DNA from: Saprospiraceae bacterium
GTDB taxonomy: Bacteria > Bacteroidota > Bacteroidia > Chitinophagales > Saprospiraceae
DNA length: 64,000 nt
NCBI GenBank assembly: GCA_020630435.1
Contig: JAHDBJ010000001.1
Span: forward strand, 310,001 to 374,000
Direction of reading: 5' to 3'
Every line of letters starts with the position of its first letter. Within the stretch, counting starts at the first letter, position 1. Under the pieces are notes generated by a model. It searched no databases. It saw nothing but the letters and a program-made list of their open reading frames with translations, and was not told the origin of the DNA. This document shows positions 9,008-30,566 of the stretch, in pieces. The translations under genes were made by a program, and so were the position numbers.

Positions 9008-12000
9008 ATGAAGATTGAGAGAGTTCGTATTAAAAATCTCAATTCCCTAAAACTGGAAAAGGAGATAGACTTTACCGTCCCACCACTAGGGAATACAGGC
9101 TTATTTGCAATTACAGGAGATACAGGAGCAGGAAAAACAACTATTCTCGATGCAATTACACTTGCTTTATACGGACAAACTCCTAGAAAACACCATGATG
9201 AAATTATGTCTTATGGAACAGGGGACTGTTACGCAGAAATAGAATTTTTTGTAAAAGAAAATCATTACAGGGCAAAGTGGCTGAGACATCGTTCTAGAAA
9301 TAAATTAGATGGGAAATTACAAAATCCAAAAAGAGAGTTATCGGTTTTTAATGCGGATACTAGTAATTGGGATATTATCAGTACACGCATAAACCAGATT
9401 ACAGAAGAAATTTCAAAAATAACAGATCTCAACTATGATCAATTTAGGCGATCGGTATTACTTGCACAAGGTGATTTTGCTGCATTTTTAGATGCTGATG
9501 AAAAGAATCGCTCTGCCTTATTAGAACGAATAACTGGAACAGAAATTTATTCTAAGCTCTCCAAAGCGGCTTTTGAACGACATAAAATCGAAAGAGAAAA
9601 ATTTGAAAAACTGAATGAAAGACGTGCTCAATTACAATTAATTTCTAGGGAAGAATTAGAGGAATTAATAATTCAAAAAAAAGTATTAATAAAAGAAATT
9701 AAACAACATAAAGAACAAATACAAACCTTACAAAAGCCTTTAGATTATACTAAAAAGAGAACAGAGTTAGAGGAACTCAATAAAGAGTTAGAGGAAAATA
9801 TTATAAAGTTTAAAAAGGAACAAGTAGAACTAAAAGGAATCGAGGAAAAAGCAAAAGATATTTTAGTAGAACACCAGAAAGGTTTATCAGCGTTACAAGC
9901 AGAAAGAGAGAAGAAAATGCCTTTATTTGATAAAATCATCCAGATTGATATTGAAATAAAAAAAGATGGACAAATATTTTTAGAGACCCAGAAAAATATA
10001 ATGGAATCCAATGAAAAGAGTGAAAAACTGCAAGAACAATTAATCAATGAAACGGCAGCTCAAAAAAGAATAGAGGAAACCATTAGGGATACTGAAGGAT
10101 GGCTAAAAAATAATATGAATCTCGAATCTATTCAAGAAGCCTATCAAGGAATAGCCCTTCAAATTGAACAAGTGGTAGAAAAACGAAAAGTGAAACAAAT
10201 CCTTGAGGAACGTTATATAAAACAAAAAAATATTTTTAATAAGGAAATTAAAAATCAACAAGTTGCAGACCAGCAACAGGTCGCTTTACAAAAGATGTTA
10301 AAAGCCTATGGAGATTCGTTGAAGAAAATTCTGCCTAAGGAAATAGAACAGCAACAAAATGAGTGGTTACAAACGGCAATACAAGAAATAGAAGAATTAG
10401 ATTTACATTTACAGCGTATCAAACAACTTATTCAACTTCAGTCGTCTTATGAAAATATTCAAAAGAAAACAGCAATTCTTCAAGAAACACTAGAAAATCA
10501 AGCTTTAACTATTGAACTACTGAGTAGTGAATTGTTGAATTATGAGTTTAATATACTCGGAGAATTAGAAGCTGAAGCAAAGTATACAGAGCAATTATAT
10601 CAACGAGAGCTGAAAATGGCAAATTATATGAGAGACAGAAAAGCATTGGAAGAAGGAGAGGCTTGCCCACTTTGTCTGTCGAAAGAACATCCATTTAGAC
10701 ATGAGCATTTTGAATTATTTGTAGATCGTAAAGAAAAAGCACATAAAGCGGCTAAAAAGGCTTATGAAAACGCTTTAGAAGTGAAAATGGATAAAGGTGC
10801 AAAACTTCAGAAAGAATACAAAAATAGTGATGTCCTTTATACTAAAATCGAACAAGCTAATGTGCAGATGACAGAGATTGAAGAGCAGATTACTTTGTTG
10901 ACAAGAAAGATGGACGAAAGTCAACTTCAGTATGTTAAAGCAGAGCAATTATATGATTTTAGAATGTATTTAGAAAAGAATATTCAAGACAAGAAAAAAA
11001 TCAGAAATGAAGTTTCTACAATACTAGGAGGGATAGATAAAATTAAACCACAACTTGAACAAAAAAAACTAGCATTTGCCAATGCTAAAAATGCAGCAGA
11101 AAATGCAAGGAAAGAATTGAGTGCCATCGAAAAAGAAGGGCTTAATTCAAAAGCAGAAATAGATGCTTTAGGAGAGGTTTTAAAAAATAAATTAGAAAAA
11201 TATCAGCTCAATTTTAGTATCGAAAAAGTAGGGGGAATTTTGAAAGAACTCAAATCTAAAGGAAAACAATATTCAAAGAAGCGAATTGATTTTGAGGAGG
11301 CTAAACATAATTTGGCATTGAAAAAAAAGAGTTTAGAAAATAGAAGGAATCAACTTGAAGAATTCAATAACACACACACTAAACTAAAAGCCATAATAGA
11401 GGAGCAAGAGCAAAAACTAGAAAATATAAAACAGCAAAGATTGGAGTACTTTGCGGATAAAAATCCATTAGAAGAACGACAACAATTAGAGGAACGATTG
11501 AAGGCGCAAGAAGGTATAATAGAAACAGCAGTAGCTTCACATACACAAAGACAATTAGAGTTGACACGTATTGATACAGAACTTAAAAATATGGAGGCAC
11601 AACTCCAAAAAAATACAACATTAAAACAAAAACAAGATGCAAAACTACAAGAAAGCTTAAAACATTTTGGTATTGAAAACCTTGATAAGGTTCAAATACA
11701 AATCGCAAACCTAGAAGAAATACAAGGACAAAAACAACAAACCTTTGGAGCTATTGGAGAACGAATAAATACGCACGAACAAAATGAAAAATCAAATCAA
11801 CAACTTCAAAAGGATATTCGTCAGCAAAAGAAGGAAGTCCAAAAATGGGCTCGACTTAATGATGTCATTGGTCAAGCCGATGGTAAAAAATTTAGGATAT
11901 TTGCACAAGGATTGACTTTACAACGATTAGTATATATAGCCAATAAACATCTTCAAGAATTAAATGGTCGGTTTCTAATAGAAAAAGATGCGAAACAAGA

Positions 12001-12343
12001 TTTAGGGTTGAAAATTATTGATAAATATCAAGCCAATCACAAACGTTCGATGAATACATTATCTGGAGGCGAACGTTTTTTGGTGAGTTTAGCACTTGCT
12101 TTAGGTTTATCCGATATGACGGGCAAAAACGCTCAAATCAACTCTCTTTTTATTGATGAGGGATTTGGAACATTAGATTCCAATACATTAGATATGGCAA
12201 TTTCTACACTTGAAAATTTACGAAGCCAAGGAAAAACAATTGGGGTTATTTCTCATATCGATCAGTTGAAAGAACGTATCACAACACAGATTTTTCTACG
12301 AAAAAAACAAAATGGATTTAGTGATATACAAATATTGGGATAA
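9008..12343 (+). CDS. sbcC: SbcC/Rad50-type DNA repair ATPase
   Basis: A 1111-aa SMC-like ATPase. The N-terminal Walker A is GDTGAGKTT (residues 37-45). Two long coiled-coil arms flank a zinc hook CPLC (C553, C556). The C-terminal half-domain has the ABC signature LSGGERF near residue 1018, Walker B LFIDEGFGTLD and the switch His in VISHIDQL. With the nuclease SbcD the family forms a complex that opens DNA hairpins and protein-blocked ends. No sbcD gene is adjacent: the upstream gene is on the other strand and the downstream one is a transporter, so the partner must be elsewhere. Confidence 0.94.
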   Translation: MKIERVRIKNLNSLKLEKEIDFTVPPLGNTGLFAITGDTGAGKTTILDAITLALYGQTPRKHHDEIMSYGTGDCYAEIEFFVKENHYRAKWLRHRSRNKLDGKLQNPKRELSVFNADTSNWDIISTRINQITEEISKITDLNYDQFRRSVLLAQGDFAAFLDADEKNRSALLERITGTEIYSKLSKAAFERHKIEREKFEKLNERRAQLQLISREELEELIIQKKVLIKEIKQHKEQIQTLQKPLDYTKKRTELEELNKELEENIIKFKKEQVELKGIEEKAKDILVEHQKGLSALQAEREKKMPLFDKIIQIDIEIKKDGQIFLETQKNIMESNEKSEKLQEQLINETAAQKRIEETIRDTEGWLKNNMNLESIQEAYQGIALQIEQVVEKRKVKQILEERYIKQKNIFNKEIKNQQVADQQQVALQKMLKAYGDSLKKILPKEIEQQQNEWLQTAIQEIEELDLHLQRIKQLIQLQSSYENIQKKTAILQETLENQALTIELLSSELLNYEFNILGELEAEAKYTEQLYQRELKMANYMRDRKALEEGEACPLCLSKEHPFRHEHFELFVDRKEKAHKAAKKAYENALEVKMDKGAKLQKEYKNSDVLYTKIEQANVQMTEIEEQITLLTRKMDESQLQYVKAEQLYDFRMYLEKNIQDKKKIRNEVSTILGGIDKIKPQLEQKKLAFANAKNAAENARKELSAIEKEGLNSKAEIDALGEVLKNKLEKYQLNFSIEKVGGILKELKSKGKQYSKKRIDFEEAKHNLALKKKSLENRRNQLEEFNNTHTKLKAIIEEQEQKLENIKQQRLEYFADKNPLEERQQLEERLKAQEGIIETAVASHTQRQLELTRIDTELKNMEAQLQKNTTLKQKQDAKLQESLKHFGIENLDKVQIQIANLEEIQGQKQQTFGAIGERINTHEQNEKSNQQLQKDIRQQKKEVQKWARLNDVIGQADGKKFRIFAQGLTLQRLVYIANKHLQELNGRFLIEKDAKQDLGLKIIDKYQANHKRSMNTLSGGERFLVSLALALGLSDMTGKNAQINSLFIDEGFGTLDSNTLDMAISTLENLRSQGKTIGVISHIDQLKERITTQIFLRKKQNGFSDIQILG

Positions 12344-24514: not shown

Positions 24515-24534
24515 CCCACTCAAAAGAGAGTGGG
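24515..24534 (+). other. Upstream hairpin of RNA element 1
   Basis: CCCACTC (24515-24521) and GAGTGGG (24528-24534) form a perfect 7-bp stem with a 6-nt loop. The stem ends 5-7 nt before the acceptor stem of the tRNA-like element. The second RNA element has a hairpin in the same place. Confidence 0.7.
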
Positions 24535-24539
24535 TAAAT

Positions 24540-24690
24540 GAGAGAGAGGCAAGGCGCAAAGTGTTACGATGGTTAAGGTCAAGTGTAAGGTAAATTACCA
24601 AGCAGCTTTAAGTCCATCGGGTTGAAATACCTAACGTATTGATTATACATAAAATAGAAAAACCTAGGTTCGATTCCTAACTCTCTCACT
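24540..24690 (+). ncRNA. tRNA-like RNA element 1
   Basis: The two ends fold like a tRNA. GAGAGAG (24542-24548; the run starts at 24540) pairs with CTCTCTC (24681-24687), followed by a discriminator-like A. The T-loop TTCGATT (24669-24675) sits between ctagg and cctaa, four of five pairs good. The space between acceptor and T-arm is about 115 nt where a tRNA has ~41. It holds a long imperfect hairpin (CGATGG 24567-24572 with CCATCG 24614-24619, extended by TTAAG/CTTTAA) and no normal D or anticodon arm. CCA is not encoded. It cannot be a normal tRNA and is too short for tmRNA. Confidence 0.6.
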
Positions 24691-24705
24691 ATTAAAGATG
24701 CTTAG

Positions 24706-24766
24706 CCCGAGAAAAGAACGCCTTTTAAGCTTTCCTGTGCCTTAAGTAAGCACTATCGGGTTTTTT
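24706..24766 (+). terminator. Branched terminator after RNA element 1
   Basis: CCCGA (24706-24710) pairs with TCGGG (24756-24760) and is followed by six T. Inside are two smaller hairpins: AAAAG/CTTTT at 24712-24726, and GTG-CTTA/TAAG-CAC near 24737-24753. It would end a short RNA that includes the tRNA-like element, just before the HU gene. Confidence 0.65.
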
Positions 24767-24788
24767 CAATCACCAAACCACTAAAATT

Positions 24789-25082
24789 ATGACAAAGAAG
24801 CAACTAGAAAATATCATTTCCGACAGAGTTGAATTACCCATTTCAAAGACAAAGGAGGTTCTTGACGAATTGGTCAACATCATCAATGAGGAAGTTGGTC
24901 AAGGCAATGACTTTAAACTTAATGAAGTCGGCACTTTCAAACCAACAATACGAACATCTAGAATGGGCAGAAATCCTAAAACAGGAGAAGCTATTCGAAT
25001 TCCTGAAAAAAAGATAGTCAAGTTCAAGCCTAGTAAGCGATTGCAGATTAGTGCTTCTACTTGGCTAGGTAGCAACGGCTAA
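24789..25082 (+). CDS. HU/IHF-family DNA-binding protein
   Basis: A 97-aa histone-like protein. It starts with a dimerising helix pair (MTKKQLENIISDRVELP, VLDELVNIINEEV) and continues with FKLNEVGTFKPTIRTSRMGRNPKTGEAI, which covers the beta arm with its GRNPKTGE tip, and ends KIVKFKPSKRL. All parts match HU. It bends or wraps DNA and probably serves phage recombination, replication or packaging. It stands between the two tRNA-like RNA elements, with its own start after the terminator of the first. Confidence 0.93.
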   Translation: MTKKQLENIISDRVELPISKTKEVLDELVNIINEEVGQGNDFKLNEVGTFKPTIRTSRMGRNPKTGEAIRIPEKKIVKFKPSKRLQISASTWLGSNG

Positions 25083-25110
25083 GAGGTTTTTGCATAATCA
25101 ATAAATTCCT

Positions 25111-25136
25111 ACTGGAGCTAAAAAGTTAGTTCCAGT
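25111..25136 (+). other. Upstream hairpin of RNA element 2
   Basis: ACTGGAGCT (25111-25119) pairs with AGTTCCAGT (25128-25136): 9 bp with one G-U pair and an 8-nt loop. It ends 4 nt before the acceptor stem of the second tRNA-like element. ACTGGA could also pair with a second TCCAGTA copy at 25151-25157 inside that element. Confidence 0.65.
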
Positions 25137-25140
25137 ATAT

Positions 25141-25248
25141 GCAGATGAAGTCCAGTAACAACTTTTTTTAAAATGATTATATGAGTTTGGATTTTGAAAC
25201 TATTTGGTTTAAACGGGGGCTATTGAGGTTCGACTCCTTACATCTGCA
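25141..25248 (+). ncRNA. tRNA-like RNA element 2
   Basis: GCAGATG (25141-25147) and CATCTGC (25241-25247) form a perfect 7-bp acceptor stem, followed by A. The T-arm is complete: TGAGG (25224-25228), loop TTCGACT (25229-25235) and CCTTA (25236-25240), with one G-U pair. The region between is 76 nt instead of ~41. A 4-bp AAGT/ACTT stem follows the acceptor directly, and AGTTT/AAACT with an 8-nt loop stands where an anticodon arm might be, but neither is canonical. No CCA is encoded. Its ends differ fully from element 1, so the two are independent copies of one design. Confidence 0.6.
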
Positions 25249-25298
25249 CATTCCACATTAAATAGGTTGAGAAAACCCTTGAACGGAATCAACAAAAG

Positions 25299-25342
25299 CA
25301 TACGTAAATCCCGTGAGGCAAGGCAAAATATCGGGACGTATG
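25299..25342 (+). other. Structured RNA hairpin downstream of element 2
   Basis: CATACGT (25299-25305) pairs with ACGTATG (25336-25342), and inside it CCCG (25310-25313) pairs with CGGG (25332-25335). The A-rich loop carries GAGGCAAGGCAAAA. This stable fold lies in the non-coding stretch 25083-25448, together with element 2 and the hairpin at 25401-25425. Confidence 0.6.
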
Positions 25343-25400
25343 GAAGTGCTTTGAGATTATGACATTCAAGCAAGTATCAACCATCAATACAATCAATTTT

Positions 25401-25430
25401 GAGCCGTCTCCTTGCGGACGAGCTCTTTAA
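25401..25430 (+). terminator. Hairpin before the ArsR-like gene
   Basis: GAGC-CGTC (25401-25408) pairs with GACG-a-GCTC (25417-25425) with one bulged A and an 8-nt loop. CTTTAATAAAAAA follows. The T-run is short, so it may be a partial terminator or a leader hairpin for the regulator gene 19 bp downstream. Confidence 0.5.
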
Positions 25431-25448: not shown

Positions 25449-25760
25449 ATGAACAGTTATCATGAAAAAGTAAAAGAGAGTATCAAAAAAGCCAGTCAAA
25501 TTTACAAGGCTTATCAGCACGATGCTAGACAAGAGATACTCAAATTAATTGAAGAAAAAGGGGCAATAACAGTCACTAAAATCTACAAAACATTAGAAAC
25601 TAACCAATCCGAAGTATCTAGGCAATTGAAGTTTCTAAGACGAGCAAATTTAGTCAATACCGAGCGCAAAGGAAAGTTTGTGTTTTACAGCATTAACCAT
25701 CCGATGTTTGATAAACTGATTGAAGCATCACAGATTTTAGAAGAGGTATTAACCGATTAA
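25449..25760 (+). CDS. ArsR-like winged-helix transcriptional regulator
   Basis: A 103-aa winged-helix protein: RQEILKLIEEKGAITVTKIYKTLETNQSEVSRQLKFLRRANLVNTERKGKFVFYSI is the whole HTH plus wing of the ArsR/SmtB type. No metal-binding cysteines are present, so it is not a typical metal sensor. It likely controls phage genes. It stands after the structured RNA region and starts the next replication block. Confidence 0.82.
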   Translation: MNSYHEKVKESIKKASQIYKAYQHDARQEILKLIEEKGAITVTKIYKTLETNQSEVSRQLKFLRRANLVNTERKGKFVFYSINHPMFDKLIEASQILEEVLTD

Positions 25761-28013: not shown

Positions 28014-30566
28014 GTGGTAGTACAACACACAAACATACAACTTAGGGAATACCAATTGCGAGGTGTCAAAATGCTGAACGATGCTTTTCGTCAAGGTTTT
28101 AAACGTCCAATATGGTGCTACCCTACAGGAGCTGGAAAGTGTCTAGGAAAAAACACTCCTATCTTAATGTTTGACGGCTCAATAAAAATGGTTCAAGACA
28201 TAAAGGTTGGAGATGAAATTATGGGTGTAGATTCTCAAAAAAGAGTTATTATGAACCTAGTTAGAGGAGTAGATGATATGTATAAAATTACTCCCATAAA
28301 AGGGGGAGATCCTTTTATTTGTAATTCTACCCACATTATTAGTTTAGTTTGTAATGGTTCTAAGACAAGGTATAAAAAGAATGAAATTGTAAATATCAGT
28401 GTTTGTGATTATTTAAAACTACCAAAGTCTGTAAGGCACTGTTTGAAATTATATCGAACAGGGGTAGATTTTCCTGAAAAGGATATTATACTCGATCCCT
28501 ATTTTTTAGGGCTATGGCTAGGAGATGGGGATAAAAAGTCTTCCAGAATCACTACCGCCGATTTTGAAGTGGTAGATTTTTTAAAAGATTATGCATCAAA
28601 ACTGAATCTAAGATTTAATAGGGAGAAGAACGAGTATAATGGATCAGCAGCAACTTACTCAATCACAAGAGGCAGGGATTCACATGGGTACAACTTAACT
28701 AGTGTTTTAAAGTATTATCGAATCTACAACAATAAACATATCCCAAAGGACTTTTTATACAATTCTGAAGATATTAGATTGAATGTATTAGCTGGTCTAA
28801 TAGATAGCGATGGGTATTTGCACCATAATTTTTTTGAATATACTACGAAGTTAAATTCATTGAAAGATAATGTTGCTTTCTTAGCCAGATCACTTGGATT
28901 TCAAGTAAACATTCAGATAAAATATAACAAGAAGTATAATCGAAACTATTTCCGTTTAAATATATGTGGAGATATAGATAGAATTCCTACTAAGATTAAA
29001 AGAAAAGTAGGAGCTCGTAGAAGGCAGATAAAAAATGTCCTAAGAACAGGGTTTTATGTAGAATCAATAGGTAAGGGTAATTACTATGGATTTTCAATTG
29101 AAGGTAAAGACAAATTATTTTTACTTGGAGATTTCACAGTCACCCACAATAGTACTATCTGCTCTGCGTATATTCGAAAGTGTTTAGCTGCCAATAAAAG
29201 AGTTCTATTTTTTGTCCACTCCAAAGAGCTCGTCCAGCAATTTGCATTAAGGCTCAAAAATCAATTTGGTATCCCTTCGGGTATCATCATGGCAGGAGTA
29301 ACGCCATTTAGAAACCGTCCAGTTCAAGTGGCTAGTGTTCAAACACTCGTTAGAAGAAAGCTACCTCCTGCCGACATCATCTTCATTGATGAATGCCATC
29401 GCAGTAAAGCCAAGACCTATCTAAAAATTATAGAGCAATATCCCAAAGCCATAATAGTAGGACTAACAGCGACACCCTTTCGAGGGGATGGCAAAGGCTT
29501 AGGAGACATCTTTGATACCATTGTTCAGCCTGTTCGAATTCGGGAATTGATAAAGCTGGGCTATCTAGTACCAACAAAAGTATTTTCTCCTAAAGAATCT
29601 GCGGATATGACGAATGTTCGTACGGTGCGAGGGGATTTTGATTTAAATGAAATGTACAGCAAGTTTTCCGAAGTCTCTGTCATCAGAGGCGTGGTTGAAA
29701 ACTACTTGAAACATGCCAATGGTAAAAAAGCGATTGTCTTTAATGTCAATATTGAACACTCCCAAGAAATCTGTGAGGAGTTCAAAAGACATGGCATCGC
29801 AGCGGCTCACTTGGATGGAACGACCAACAAGAAGTTGAGAACTCGAATTGTTCATCTTTTCAAAATAGGCAAAGTCCAGGTCTTGTGTAATGTAGCATTA
29901 TTTTGTGAAGGCTTCGACATTCCTGATACCGAGTGTGTTATCATCAATCGAGCCACTAAATCCAAAGGATTATATGTTCAAATTGTGGGTAGAGGATTAA
30001 GACCCGCTAATGGAAAAGAATATTGTATTGTATTGGATCATGGTGGGAATACCCTCCGACATGGATTTGTAGAGGATTATGACGGTGTGCCTTTTTCATT
30101 AGAAGGAGAGCAGCGATTAAATGAGGAAGAGGACGAAAAGAAAGTCAAGGAATGTCCCTCTTGCGCTGCCATTATGAAACGATATCAAAGAAAGTGTGAT
30201 AACTGCGATTTTGAGTTTCCTGTCAAGCAAAGAACCATCAAATTCGGAGATGGTCAGGAATTCACTTTCCTAGATAGAGAGGCAACTATCTTGGAACGAT
30301 TGCATGGCATTCCACATCATAAAGTCGCTAGGAATGTACCACTTTCTCAGCTTAGAATTTATGGATTATTGAAAGGCTATAAAAACGGCTGGTGGTTTCA
30401 TACTGCCATTGATGATGGGTATTTGGAAGATATAGACAAAGCTCACAATGATGCCTTTGGATCCGTTCGCTTCAGGTGTCGATTGGCTGAGATTGAAGGT
30501 GGTACTCATGAACTTTATTTATCACTCAAAGCAAAAAATAAGAAGCATGGAGCTACTAAAGAGTGA
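28014..30566 (+). CDS. SF2 DEAD/DEAH-box helicase carrying an intein
   Basis: 850 codons. After removal of the intein the host protein has 513 aa. Residues 1-42 give LREYQLRGVKMLNDAF and the P-loop start PTGAGK, completed after splicing by ST. Then come DECHRSK (Walker B, a DECH box), GLTATPFRGDG (motif III), and the second RecA domain ending in VQIVGRGLRPANGK (motif VI). A zinc-ribbon-like CPSCAAIMKRYQRKCDNCDF follows. It should unwind DNA in phage replication or recombination. The start is a GTG that overlaps no other gene. The next gene overlaps its end by 20 bp. Confidence 0.9.
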   Translation: MVVQHTNIQLREYQLRGVKMLNDAFRQGFKRPIWCYPTGAGKCLGKNTPILMFDGSIKMVQDIKVGDEIMGVDSQKRVIMNLVRGVDDMYKITPIKGGDPFICNSTHIISLVCNGSKTRYKKNEIVNISVCDYLKLPKSVRHCLKLYRTGVDFPEKDIILDPYFLGLWLGDGDKKSSRITTADFEVVDFLKDYASKLNLRFNREKNEYNGSAATYSITRGRDSHGYNLTSVLKYYRIYNNKHIPKDFLYNSEDIRLNVLAGLIDSDGYLHHNFFEYTTKLNSLKDNVAFLARSLGFQVNIQIKYNKKYNRNYFRLNICGDIDRIPTKIKRKVGARRRQIKNVLRTGFYVESIGKGNYYGFSIEGKDKLFLLGDFTVTHNSTICSAYIRKCLAANKRVLFFVHSKELVQQFALRLKNQFGIPSGIIMAGVTPFRNRPVQVASVQTLVRRKLPPADIIFIDECHRSKAKTYLKIIEQYPKAIIVGLTATPFRGDGKGLGDIFDTIVQPVRIRELIKLGYLVPTKVFSPKESADMTNVRTVRGDFDLNEMYSKFSEVSVIRGVVENYLKHANGKKAIVFNVNIEHSQEICEEFKRHGIAAAHLDGTTNKKLRTRIVHLFKIGKVQVLCNVALFCEGFDIPDTECVIINRATKSKGLYVQIVGRGLRPANGKEYCIVLDHGGNTLRHGFVEDYDGVPFSLEGEQRLNEEEDEKKVKECPSCAAIMKRYQRKCDNCDFEFPVKQRTIKFGDGQEFTFLDREATILERLHGIPHHKVARNVPLSQLRIYGLLKGYKNGWWFHTAIDDGYLEDIDKAHNDAFGSVRFRCRLAEIEGGTHELYLSLKAKNKKHGATKE
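28140..29150 (+). other. Intein with LAGLIDADG homing endonuclease
   Basis: A 337-residue intein interrupts the helicase P-loop between GAGK and ST. It starts with Cys43 (CLGKNTPILMFDGS, block A), has the block-B Thr/His in CNSTHIIS, and ends FTVTHN with Asn379, followed by Ser380 as the extein nucleophile. The two LAGLIDADG helices are FLGLWLGDGDKK and VLAGLIDSDGYL, so the homing endonuclease looks intact. Removing the intein restores a perfect Walker A (GAGKST). Confidence 0.96.

What the first reader, a model, noticed from the sequence alone, without database searches (positions are those of the whole stretch)
24515..25430. Two hairpin-plus-tRNA-like RNAs flanking a phage HU gene
Two non-coding stretches share one design: a perfect hairpin (24515-24534; 25111-25136), a gap of 4-7 nt, a 7-bp acceptor-like stem (GAGAGAG/CTCTCTC; GCAGATG/CATCTGC), a T-arm with the canonical TTCGA loop, a discriminator-like A, and then further hairpins or a terminator. 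The acceptor sequences differ between the copies while both pair fully, which argues for selection on structure. The distance between acceptor and T-arm (about 115 and 76 nt) and the lack of normal D and anticodon arms exclude ordinary tRNAs. They may be tRNA mimics acting on EF-Tu, RNase P, CCA-adding enzyme or host tRNA-cutting defences.
Basis: seen in the sequence. Interest (0 to 1): 0.78.

Follow-up and report, generated by a model that had tools for sequence, protein, structure and literature searches.

The report
Hairpin-led tRNA-like RNAs in prophage
A virus dormant in a bacterial genome carries two stretches that look like RNA genes copying the upper half of a transfer RNA without the part that reads the genetic code, and similar stretches occur in other viruses of related bacteria, so they may be molecular lures for enzymes that handle transfer RNA.

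Summary
Both elements have a stable hairpin, a short gap, a full 7-bp acceptor-like stem, a T-arm with a canonical TTCGANT loop joined directly to the acceptor 3' strand, and an A after it. None of 200 shuffles of the window gave two such hits. ARAGORN and Rfam at curated thresholds find nothing. No D arm or anticodon arm stands out from shuffles, and removing one insert does not give a tRNA better than shuffles do. So they are not ordinary tRNAs, nor, by these tests, single-insert tRNAs.

No sequence homologue of the window copies was found. The acceptor/T-arm descriptor found the same layout in other Bacteroidota phages: a Saprospiraceae prophage (L108), Bacteroides phage BS-TP3 and the LoVEphage group. 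L108 and LoVEphages also have a strong hairpin just before the acceptor, BS-TP3 a weak one; the hairpin was not used to find them. In LoVEphages one acceptor pair differs on both sides and a predicted pseudoknot sits in the internal domain.

Best reading: non-decoding tRNA mimics, perhaps decoys for tRNA-acting defence or repair enzymes; the function is inferred. Closest in print: Lak-phage intron-bearing tRNAs and bacterial Y RNAs.

The parts
24515..24534 (+). 5' hairpin of element 1 (7 bp, 6-nt loop)
   Evidence: 0.33% of 600 local control positions as good
24540..24546 (+). acceptor-like stem, 5' strand, element 1 (GAGAGAG); the register 24542-24548 pairs as well
24547..24663 (+). internal domain of element 1 (117 nt; 115 in the other register); predicted long hairpin; no D arm or anticodon arm better than chance
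24664..24680 (+). T-arm of element 1, loop TTCGATT, 4 of 5 stem pairs
24681..24688 (+). acceptor-like stem, 3' strand (CTCTCTC) and discriminator-like A, element 1
24699..24766 (+). downstream inverted repeats of element 1 (TGCTTA/TAAGCA and CCCGA/TCGGG, crossing) followed by TTTTTT; terminator-like by eye, not listed by the simple scan
   Evidence: one search does not list it
   Evidence: phrog_379 'DNA binding protein' E 4.9e-24
25110..25137 (+). 5' hairpin of element 2 (12 bp, 4-nt loop)
   Evidence: 0 of 600 control positions as good
25141..25147 (+). acceptor-like stem, 5' strand, element 2 (GCAGATG)
25148..25223 (+). internal domain of element 2 (76 nt, AT-rich); no D arm or anticodon arm better than chance
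25224..25240 (+). T-arm of element 2, loop TTCGACT
25241..25248 (+). acceptor-like stem, 3' strand (CATCTGC) and discriminator-like A, element 2
25249..25360 (+). downstream stretch of element 2 with hairpins in the predicted fold of 25100-25360
25449..25760 (+). ArsR-type HTH gene next to element 2; a related gene (44% over 72 aa) lies next to the tRNA-like element of prophage L108

Best explanation
The two elements are phage-encoded tRNA-like RNAs that cannot decode: they keep the acceptor stem and T-arm half of a tRNA, are led by a stable 5' hairpin, and have other sequence in place of the D and anticodon half. Proposed mechanism: they are made from the early transcript, fold into a tRNA-like upper half that tRNA-handling proteins bind, and act as non-decoding competitors (decoys) for a host enzyme that acts on tRNAs, most likely a tRNA-directed defence or RNA-repair factor. 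Shown: the architecture, its rarity by chance, a similar layout in other Bacteroidota phages, one two-sided acceptor change in one of those groups, and no detectable decoding arm in the window copies. Inferred: that they are transcribed and processed at all, the binding partner, the decoy role.
For: Descriptor hits exceed shuffles. No ARAGORN gene and no Rfam match at curated thresholds; a permissive scan lists only matches far below them. Same layout with a long internal domain in L108 (G711:C30:1916-2058, gap 111), Bacteroides phage BS-TP3 (L012:27702-27811, gap 78) and LoVEphage and relatives (gap 131-132). Hairpin ending 2-6 nt before the acceptor, not part of the descriptor: as good at 0 of 600 local positions for L108, 0.8% for LoVEphage, 0.5% for PV4-TP1, 7% for BS-TP3. 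LoVEphage against five relatives: acceptor pair 2-71 G-C against A-T, internal domain after the D arm identical but for one inserted base in four of the six records; that domain can form an H-type pseudoknot (8+7 bp) reached by 2 of 2000 shuffles. The base after the acceptor varies there (A, T, C). Print: a possible competitive-inhibitor role of the tRNA-like YrlA RNA against an anticodon nuclease (PMC7790460, passages seen); phage tRNAs that evade tRNA-targeting defences (PMC10264068, PMC11555353; listing and start of abstract seen).
Against: No homologue of either window copy (DNA searches: with both elements; with element 1 and with element 2 in 60 relatives each; neighbour-protein searches), so no covariation test for them. 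BS-TP3 has a canonical D arm, LoVEphage and L108 a Leu-like one, and the window copies have none that I can see, so common descent with them is not shown. My arm test has limited power: it does not call the Leu-like D arms of LoVEphage and L108 significant either (p 0.29 and 0.81). The element 2 core folds no better than shuffles (z -1.27). BS-TP3's hairpin is weak and L085 has none. BS-TP3 is a good tRNA by Rfam (53.9 bits with a 45-nt insert) and may be an insert-bearing tRNA instead. Promoter-like sites are no more frequent than in shuffles. No expression data and no target.
Confidence: 0.45

Rival explanations
1. They are tRNA genes interrupted by inserts (introns at unusual places, perhaps two each) that are removed.
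For: Viral tRNA genes with extra domains are common: of 81 distinct pattern hits with a full acceptor, 19 became complete tRNA cores on removing one segment of 34-54 nt, 17 of them at positions 27-29. Lak megaphage tRNAs with introns are reported (PMC6784885, section 12 and passages read). The host has a tRNA-Glu-like gene with an 88-nt insert (L412: score 27.5, 0 of 100 shuffles as good) and an RtcB-type gene beside it.
Against: For the window copies the best single deletion scores 15.5 (11 of 100 shuffles as good in one register, 22 of 100 in the other) and 12.6 (79 of 100), while L313, L412 and BS-TP3 beat 100 of 100. The best D arm plus anticodon arm anywhere is at chance (p 0.50 and 0.71; element 1 in the 24542 register).
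Confidence: 0.17
2. They are tRNA-like processing signals: RNase P and 3'-end nucleases cut at the folds and free the message between them from a long early transcript, as tRNAs punctuate mitochondrial transcripts.
For: The two elements flank one gene; acceptor plus T-arm is enough for RNase P on model substrates (recalled); a decoding arm is not needed.
Against: In the stretches that I scanned of BS-TP3 (43 kb), LoVEphage and PV4-TP1 (3 kb each) and L108 (20 kb) only one such element was found each, so no flanking pairs there. A hairpin just before the cut site would be expected to hinder RNase P (inference). Element 1 is followed by a terminator-like repeat.
Confidence: 0.15
3. They are phage Y-RNA-like partners of the host Ro60/Rsr protein.
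For: Bacterial YrlA has a tRNA-like domain (PMC7790460 passages); the host genome encodes a TROVE protein beside a tRNA array.
Against: In YrlA (recalled) the RNA ends form the Ro-binding stem and the acceptor-like stem is closed; here the ends would be at the acceptor. No Rfam family matched (I did not check which Y-RNA families Rfam holds). TROVE was found on contig C42 only, not in the prophage.
Confidence: 0.08
4. Decayed tRNA remnants or chance.
For: The internal parts carry no tRNA signal.
Against: Decay would hardly spare two full acceptor stems, two T-arms and two hairpins; 0 of 200 shuffles give two hits.
Confidence: 0.07

Closest known systems
Intron-bearing tRNAs of Lak megaphages (PMC6784885)
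   Same: Bacteroidota (Prevotella) phages; tRNA genes larger than expected that the standard prediction could not classify
   Different: Lak genes are read as tRNAs with an anticodon plus an intron; the window copies have no recoverable D arm or anticodon arm
Bacterial Y RNA YrlA (PMC7790460 passages)
   Same: non-decoding RNA with a tRNA-like domain, suggested as nuclease competitor
   Different: different topology (recalled), no TROVE gene in the prophage, no Rfam match
LoVEphage gene annotated as tRNA-His / tRNA-Undet in two pieces (MW660583)
   Same: 5' hairpin, acceptor, T-arm, long internal domain, intergenic place in a Bacteroides phage
   Different: keeps a Leu-like D arm; predicted pseudoknot; weak tRNA match by Rfam (29.5 bits)
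Phage tRNAs that evade tRNA-targeting defences (PMC10264068, PMC11555353; listing only)
   Same: phage-made tRNA-type RNA against tRNA-directed immunity
   Different: those act as tRNAs; these would be non-decoding decoys
tmRNA
   Same: acceptor and T-arm enclosing a long domain without a D stem
   Different: no ARAGORN or Rfam tmRNA call in the window; no frame gives a tag-like peptide ending in Ala-Ala (element 1 in the 24542 register); far shorter than the host's 382-nt tmRNA

Membership tests
tRNA (Rfam RF00005) | 7-bp acceptor and T-arm with TTCRANN loop | tested here: met
   (element 1 T-stem 4 of 5 pairs)
tRNA (Rfam RF00005) | D arm two bases after the acceptor | tested here: not met
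   scores 3.0 or 1.7 (element 1, two registers) and -4.3 (element 2) against 13.0 in BS-TP3, L313 and L412 and 8.0 in LoVEphage and L108
tRNA (Rfam RF00005) | anticodon arm of 5 bp and 7-nt loop | tested here: not met
   best arm at chance level (p 0.34 and 0.83)
tRNA (Rfam RF00005) | covariance-model or ARAGORN match | tested here: not met
   ARAGORN intron mode gave none at the default threshold; at the 50% threshold it lists 13 calls in the 2.2-kb test stretch, some covering the elements, read as chance
Intron-bearing phage tRNA | removal of one insert restores a complete tRNA | tested here: not met
   two inserts tested only as free arms, at chance
tmRNA (Rfam RF00023) | covariance-model match | tested here: not met
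   genome-wide RF00023 hits lie outside the window
tmRNA (Rfam RF00023) | tag frame ending in Ala-Ala-like residues | tested here: not met
Bacterial Y RNA | gene for a TROVE protein beside it | tested here: not met
   TROVE hits only on contig C42
Bacterial Y RNA | binding to Ro60 | not testable with these tools
   needs protein and RNA
Hairpin-led tRNA-like RNAs of Bacteroidota phages (grouping proposed here) | hairpin ending 0-7 nt before the acceptor, better than at 99% of local positions | tested here: met
   both window copies, L108, LoVEphage and PV4-TP1 pass; BS-TP3 does not (7%)

The most novel reading that the evidence does not exclude
Temperate Bacteroidota phages carry a class of dedicated non-decoding tRNA mimics, led by a 5' hairpin and with the decoding half replaced by variable structured domains, that disarm host enzymes acting on tRNAs (nucleases of tRNA-directed immunity or the RNA-repair system).
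Probability: 0.28. Interest if true: 0.82.

Novelty: new variant of a known kind. Interest (0 to 1): 0.6.

Why it matters
If true, these RNAs would be a viral counter-measure that works through the tRNA's upper half and not its anticodon, and would give a reason why phages keep tRNA-like genes that cannot decode. The work also shows that default ARAGORN passes over tRNA-like genes with extra domains in the phages tested here, and that many viral contigs match a pattern for such genes. Both can be tested by small-RNA sequencing of induced lysogens.

Tried and rejected
Ordinary tRNA, tmRNA and Rfam families: no match. Single-insert tRNA: not supported for the window copies (with 12 shuffles each, repeated with 100 shuffles and both registers of element 1). 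Pseudoknot in the window copies: only 5+5 bp, reached by 177 and 178 of 300 shuffles. Homologue searches that led nowhere: (best outside hit for element 1 E 5.6e-4 over 38-39 bases, for element 2 E 0.0036 over 25 bases; read as chance). A Flavobacterium phage with a 52%-identical topoisomerase has no element in the 8.9 kb fetched around it. L017, a relative of the BS-TP3 neighbour gene, lacks the element upstream of that gene. Besides BS-TP3, the descriptor at gaps up to 400 nt gave in the five named phages one hit with a gap of 239 (read as chance) and three tRNA-length hits in L014, and three tRNA-length hits in L009. The ArsR gene as a guide failed: 55 loci, 237,140 bases, gave the window and L108 copies, L125 and L131 at tRNA length, and L118 with a poor T-arm at gaps 82 and 168; that gene family has matches in 391 of 398 genomes of the host family, and alignment A1 was made from the two genes, so their top rank there is by construction. 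A second BS-TP3 candidate near its integrase (6 of 7 acceptor pairs) looks like an attachment-site tRNA end; dropped. L085 has the layout (gap 60) but no hairpin; kept apart. Pattern scans stopped at 120 rows each and 80 loci of each were kept and analysed; 36 hits (Leu pattern) and 68 hits (generic pattern) had at least 6 of 7 acceptor pairs; some Leu hits are plainly two ordinary tRNAs in tandem (for example L207, L215, L223, L240). Hits with fewer than 7 pairs and repeats were dropped before the counts (81 left: 52 generic, 29 Leu). Alignment A2 was cut unevenly by me and not used; the comparison rests. Literature searches; in those listings I saw no description of hairpin-led tRNA-like RNAs without an anticodon arm, which is not proof that none is in print.

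Full report
Observation. The two stretches are as described, with small corrections given in the observation check. Element 1 spans 24515-24688 and element 2 spans 25110-25248, on either side of a small DNA-binding protein gene (24789-25082). The strict T-arm motif GGTTCGANYCC occurs only twice in the 64 kb, at these two places. A descriptor of acceptor, adjacent T-arm and a gap of 20-150 nt finds both elements (three registers); 18 of 200 shuffled windows give one hit and none gives two. ARAGORN finds no tRNA or tmRNA in the window and Rfam no family at its curated scores; a permissive Rfam scan of the stretch lists six matches far below those scores.

Not ordinary tRNAs, and no sign of one removable insert. 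I scored a tRNA core (D arm, anticodon arm, their usual bases) after deletion of any one internal segment, against 100 shuffles each. L313 (a viral insert-bearing tRNA) and L412 (a host gene) reach 27.5 and BS-TP3 23.6, none matched by a shuffle. Element 1 reaches 15.5 (11 or 22 of 100 shuffles as good, by register) and element 2 12.6 (79 of 100). LoVEphage reaches 18.0 (3 of 100) and L108 15.7 (15 of 100). With the two arms free to lie anywhere, the window elements are at chance (p 0.50 and 0.71 of 300 shuffles). At the normal D-arm place they score 3.0 or 1.7 and -4.3, against 13.0 for BS-TP3, L313 and L412. The test has limits: the D regions of LoVEphage and L108 score 8.0 and are not significant against shuffles; that they are Leu-like rests on their sequence, which fits the pattern TGGCGNAANYGGNAGACGC used, on the Rfam alignment of L026 (29.5 bits) and on recalled tRNA-Leu consensus.

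Relatives by layout. The prophage's large terminase led to Bacteroidota phages and to genomes of the host family. Among five named phages the descriptor found Bacteroides phage BS-TP3 at L012:27702-27811, an intergenic place where default ARAGORN gives nothing; Rfam reads it as a tRNA with a 45-nt insert at the anticodon (53.9 bits). A short shared stretch led from BS-TP3 to LoVEphage and PV4-TP1, where the deposited annotation of LoVEphage reads tRNA-His / tRNA-Undet in two pieces. In 201,681 bases of loci from family genomes (L088-L111, partly overlapping) the descriptor gave one long-gap hit, L108, and one hit of normal tRNA length, L105. L108 is G711:C30, the same contig as CAKZUK010000030 of a Saprospiraceae MAG by length and positions. 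It has an 11-bp hairpin ending six bases before the acceptor, a Leu-like D region and, next to it, an ArsR-type gene 44% identical over 72 aa to the one beside element 2. That family of regulators is common in these genomes, so the shared neighbour may be chance.

The 5' hairpin. It was not part of the descriptor. The fraction of 600 local control positions with an equally good hairpin is 0.33% (element 1), 0 (element 2), 0 (L108), 0.8% (LoVEphage), 0.5% (PV4-TP1), 7% (BS-TP3) and 53% (L085). In 81 pattern hits from viral contigs (one of them, L214, a LoVEphage-type contig) the hairpin scores resemble those of 1650 random positions (medians 7.6 and 7.8). So a strong hairpin goes with this small Bacteroidota group and is not a general trait of viral tRNAs with extra domains.

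Constraint. In six LoVEphage-type records (95.8-100% identical to L026 over 261 bases) acceptor pair 2-71 is G-C in L026 and A-T in the other five, one hairpin pair is U-A against U-G, the D loop differs at two places, L025 differs at one T-loop base, and the domain after the D arm is identical but for one base inserted in four of the six; the base after the acceptor is A, T or C. The acceptor change is one event, shared by five records. The domain can form an H-type pseudoknot, AATAGCAT/ATGCTATT with GTCAGGT/ACTTGAC, reached by 2 of 2000 shuffles. A variable discriminator fits poorly with a need for aminoacylation (that Leu identity needs A73 is recalled).

Mechanism. Shown: the sequence architecture and its recurrence. 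Inferred: that the RNAs are made and processed, that tRNA-handling proteins bind the acceptor/T-arm half, and that this competes with a host enzyme. There is a printed suggestion of this kind for YrlA and an anticodon nuclease (PMC7790460, passages only). A nuclease of bacterial immunity that cuts tRNA tails is reported (PMC12851939, abstract and outline seen), so a decoy built on the acceptor half is plausible. I put about 0.75 on non-decoding tRNA-like RNA being the right description and about 0.35 on a decoy role given that; both are judgements.

Wider context. Of 81 distinct hits with full acceptors in the loci kept, 19 (all from the generic pattern) become complete tRNA cores (score at least 26; the largest of 800 shuffles is 25.5) when one segment of 34-54 nt is removed; 17 of these segments sit at positions 27-29, in tRNAs with different anticodons; two of the 19 (L334, L341) are near copies. 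ACAGC[AG] occurs in the removed segment of 15 of the 81 rows. This looks like a recurrent insert class in the anticodon stem and is distinct from the window elements.

Verdict. A real feature, a new variant of the known kind of phage tRNA-like genes, with an open function. The weakest points are the lack of homologues of the window copies and the lack of any expression data.

Noticed in passing
Viral loci L292, L295, L303, L308, L313, L322, L334, L344, L357, L362, L363 and others: Viral tRNA genes with a 34-54-nt insert, mostly at positions 27-29 of the anticodon stem; removing it in silico gives complete tRNA cores with various anticodons, and a number of inserts share ACAGC[AG]. Possibly an undescribed class of tRNA inserts.
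   Followed up: partly
G000:C44 near 39.9-40.4 kb (L411), G711:C94 (L422), viral loci L191, L194, L224, L244: tRNA-like genes in tandem in the host genome, not called by ARAGORN, with by eye an Asp-like anticodon arm (loop CTGTCTC; arm test p 0.07), a Leu-like D region and a giant variable region.
   Followed up: partly
L065 = G000:C42:10830-15592: 23 tRNA genes on the minus strand followed directly by a TROVE/Ro60-type gene (ORF 10830-12287).
   Followed up: partly
L428:6021-10203 (G000:C46): An RtcB-type gene and a gene with a match, below the curated cut-off, to the MXAN_6230/SCO0854 RING family; between them a tRNA-Glu(TTC)-like gene with an AT-rich 88-nt insert.
   Followed up: partly
L429:6152-6291 (G711:C42): A 140-nt gene that matches the tmRNA model end to end with the middle missing (51 bits), near an RtcB-type gene.
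   Followed up: no
L103:9047-9122 (G200:C10): tRNA gene for which ARAGORN gives the four-base anticodon aact.
   Followed up: no
window 28014-30566: Helicase-like ORF that appears to hold an intein (reading of the translation; not tested).
   Followed up: no
L012:27976-28013 and L026:1501-1538: A 38-base stretch shared between BS-TP3 and LoVEphages, downstream of the element in one and upstream in the other.
   Followed up: no
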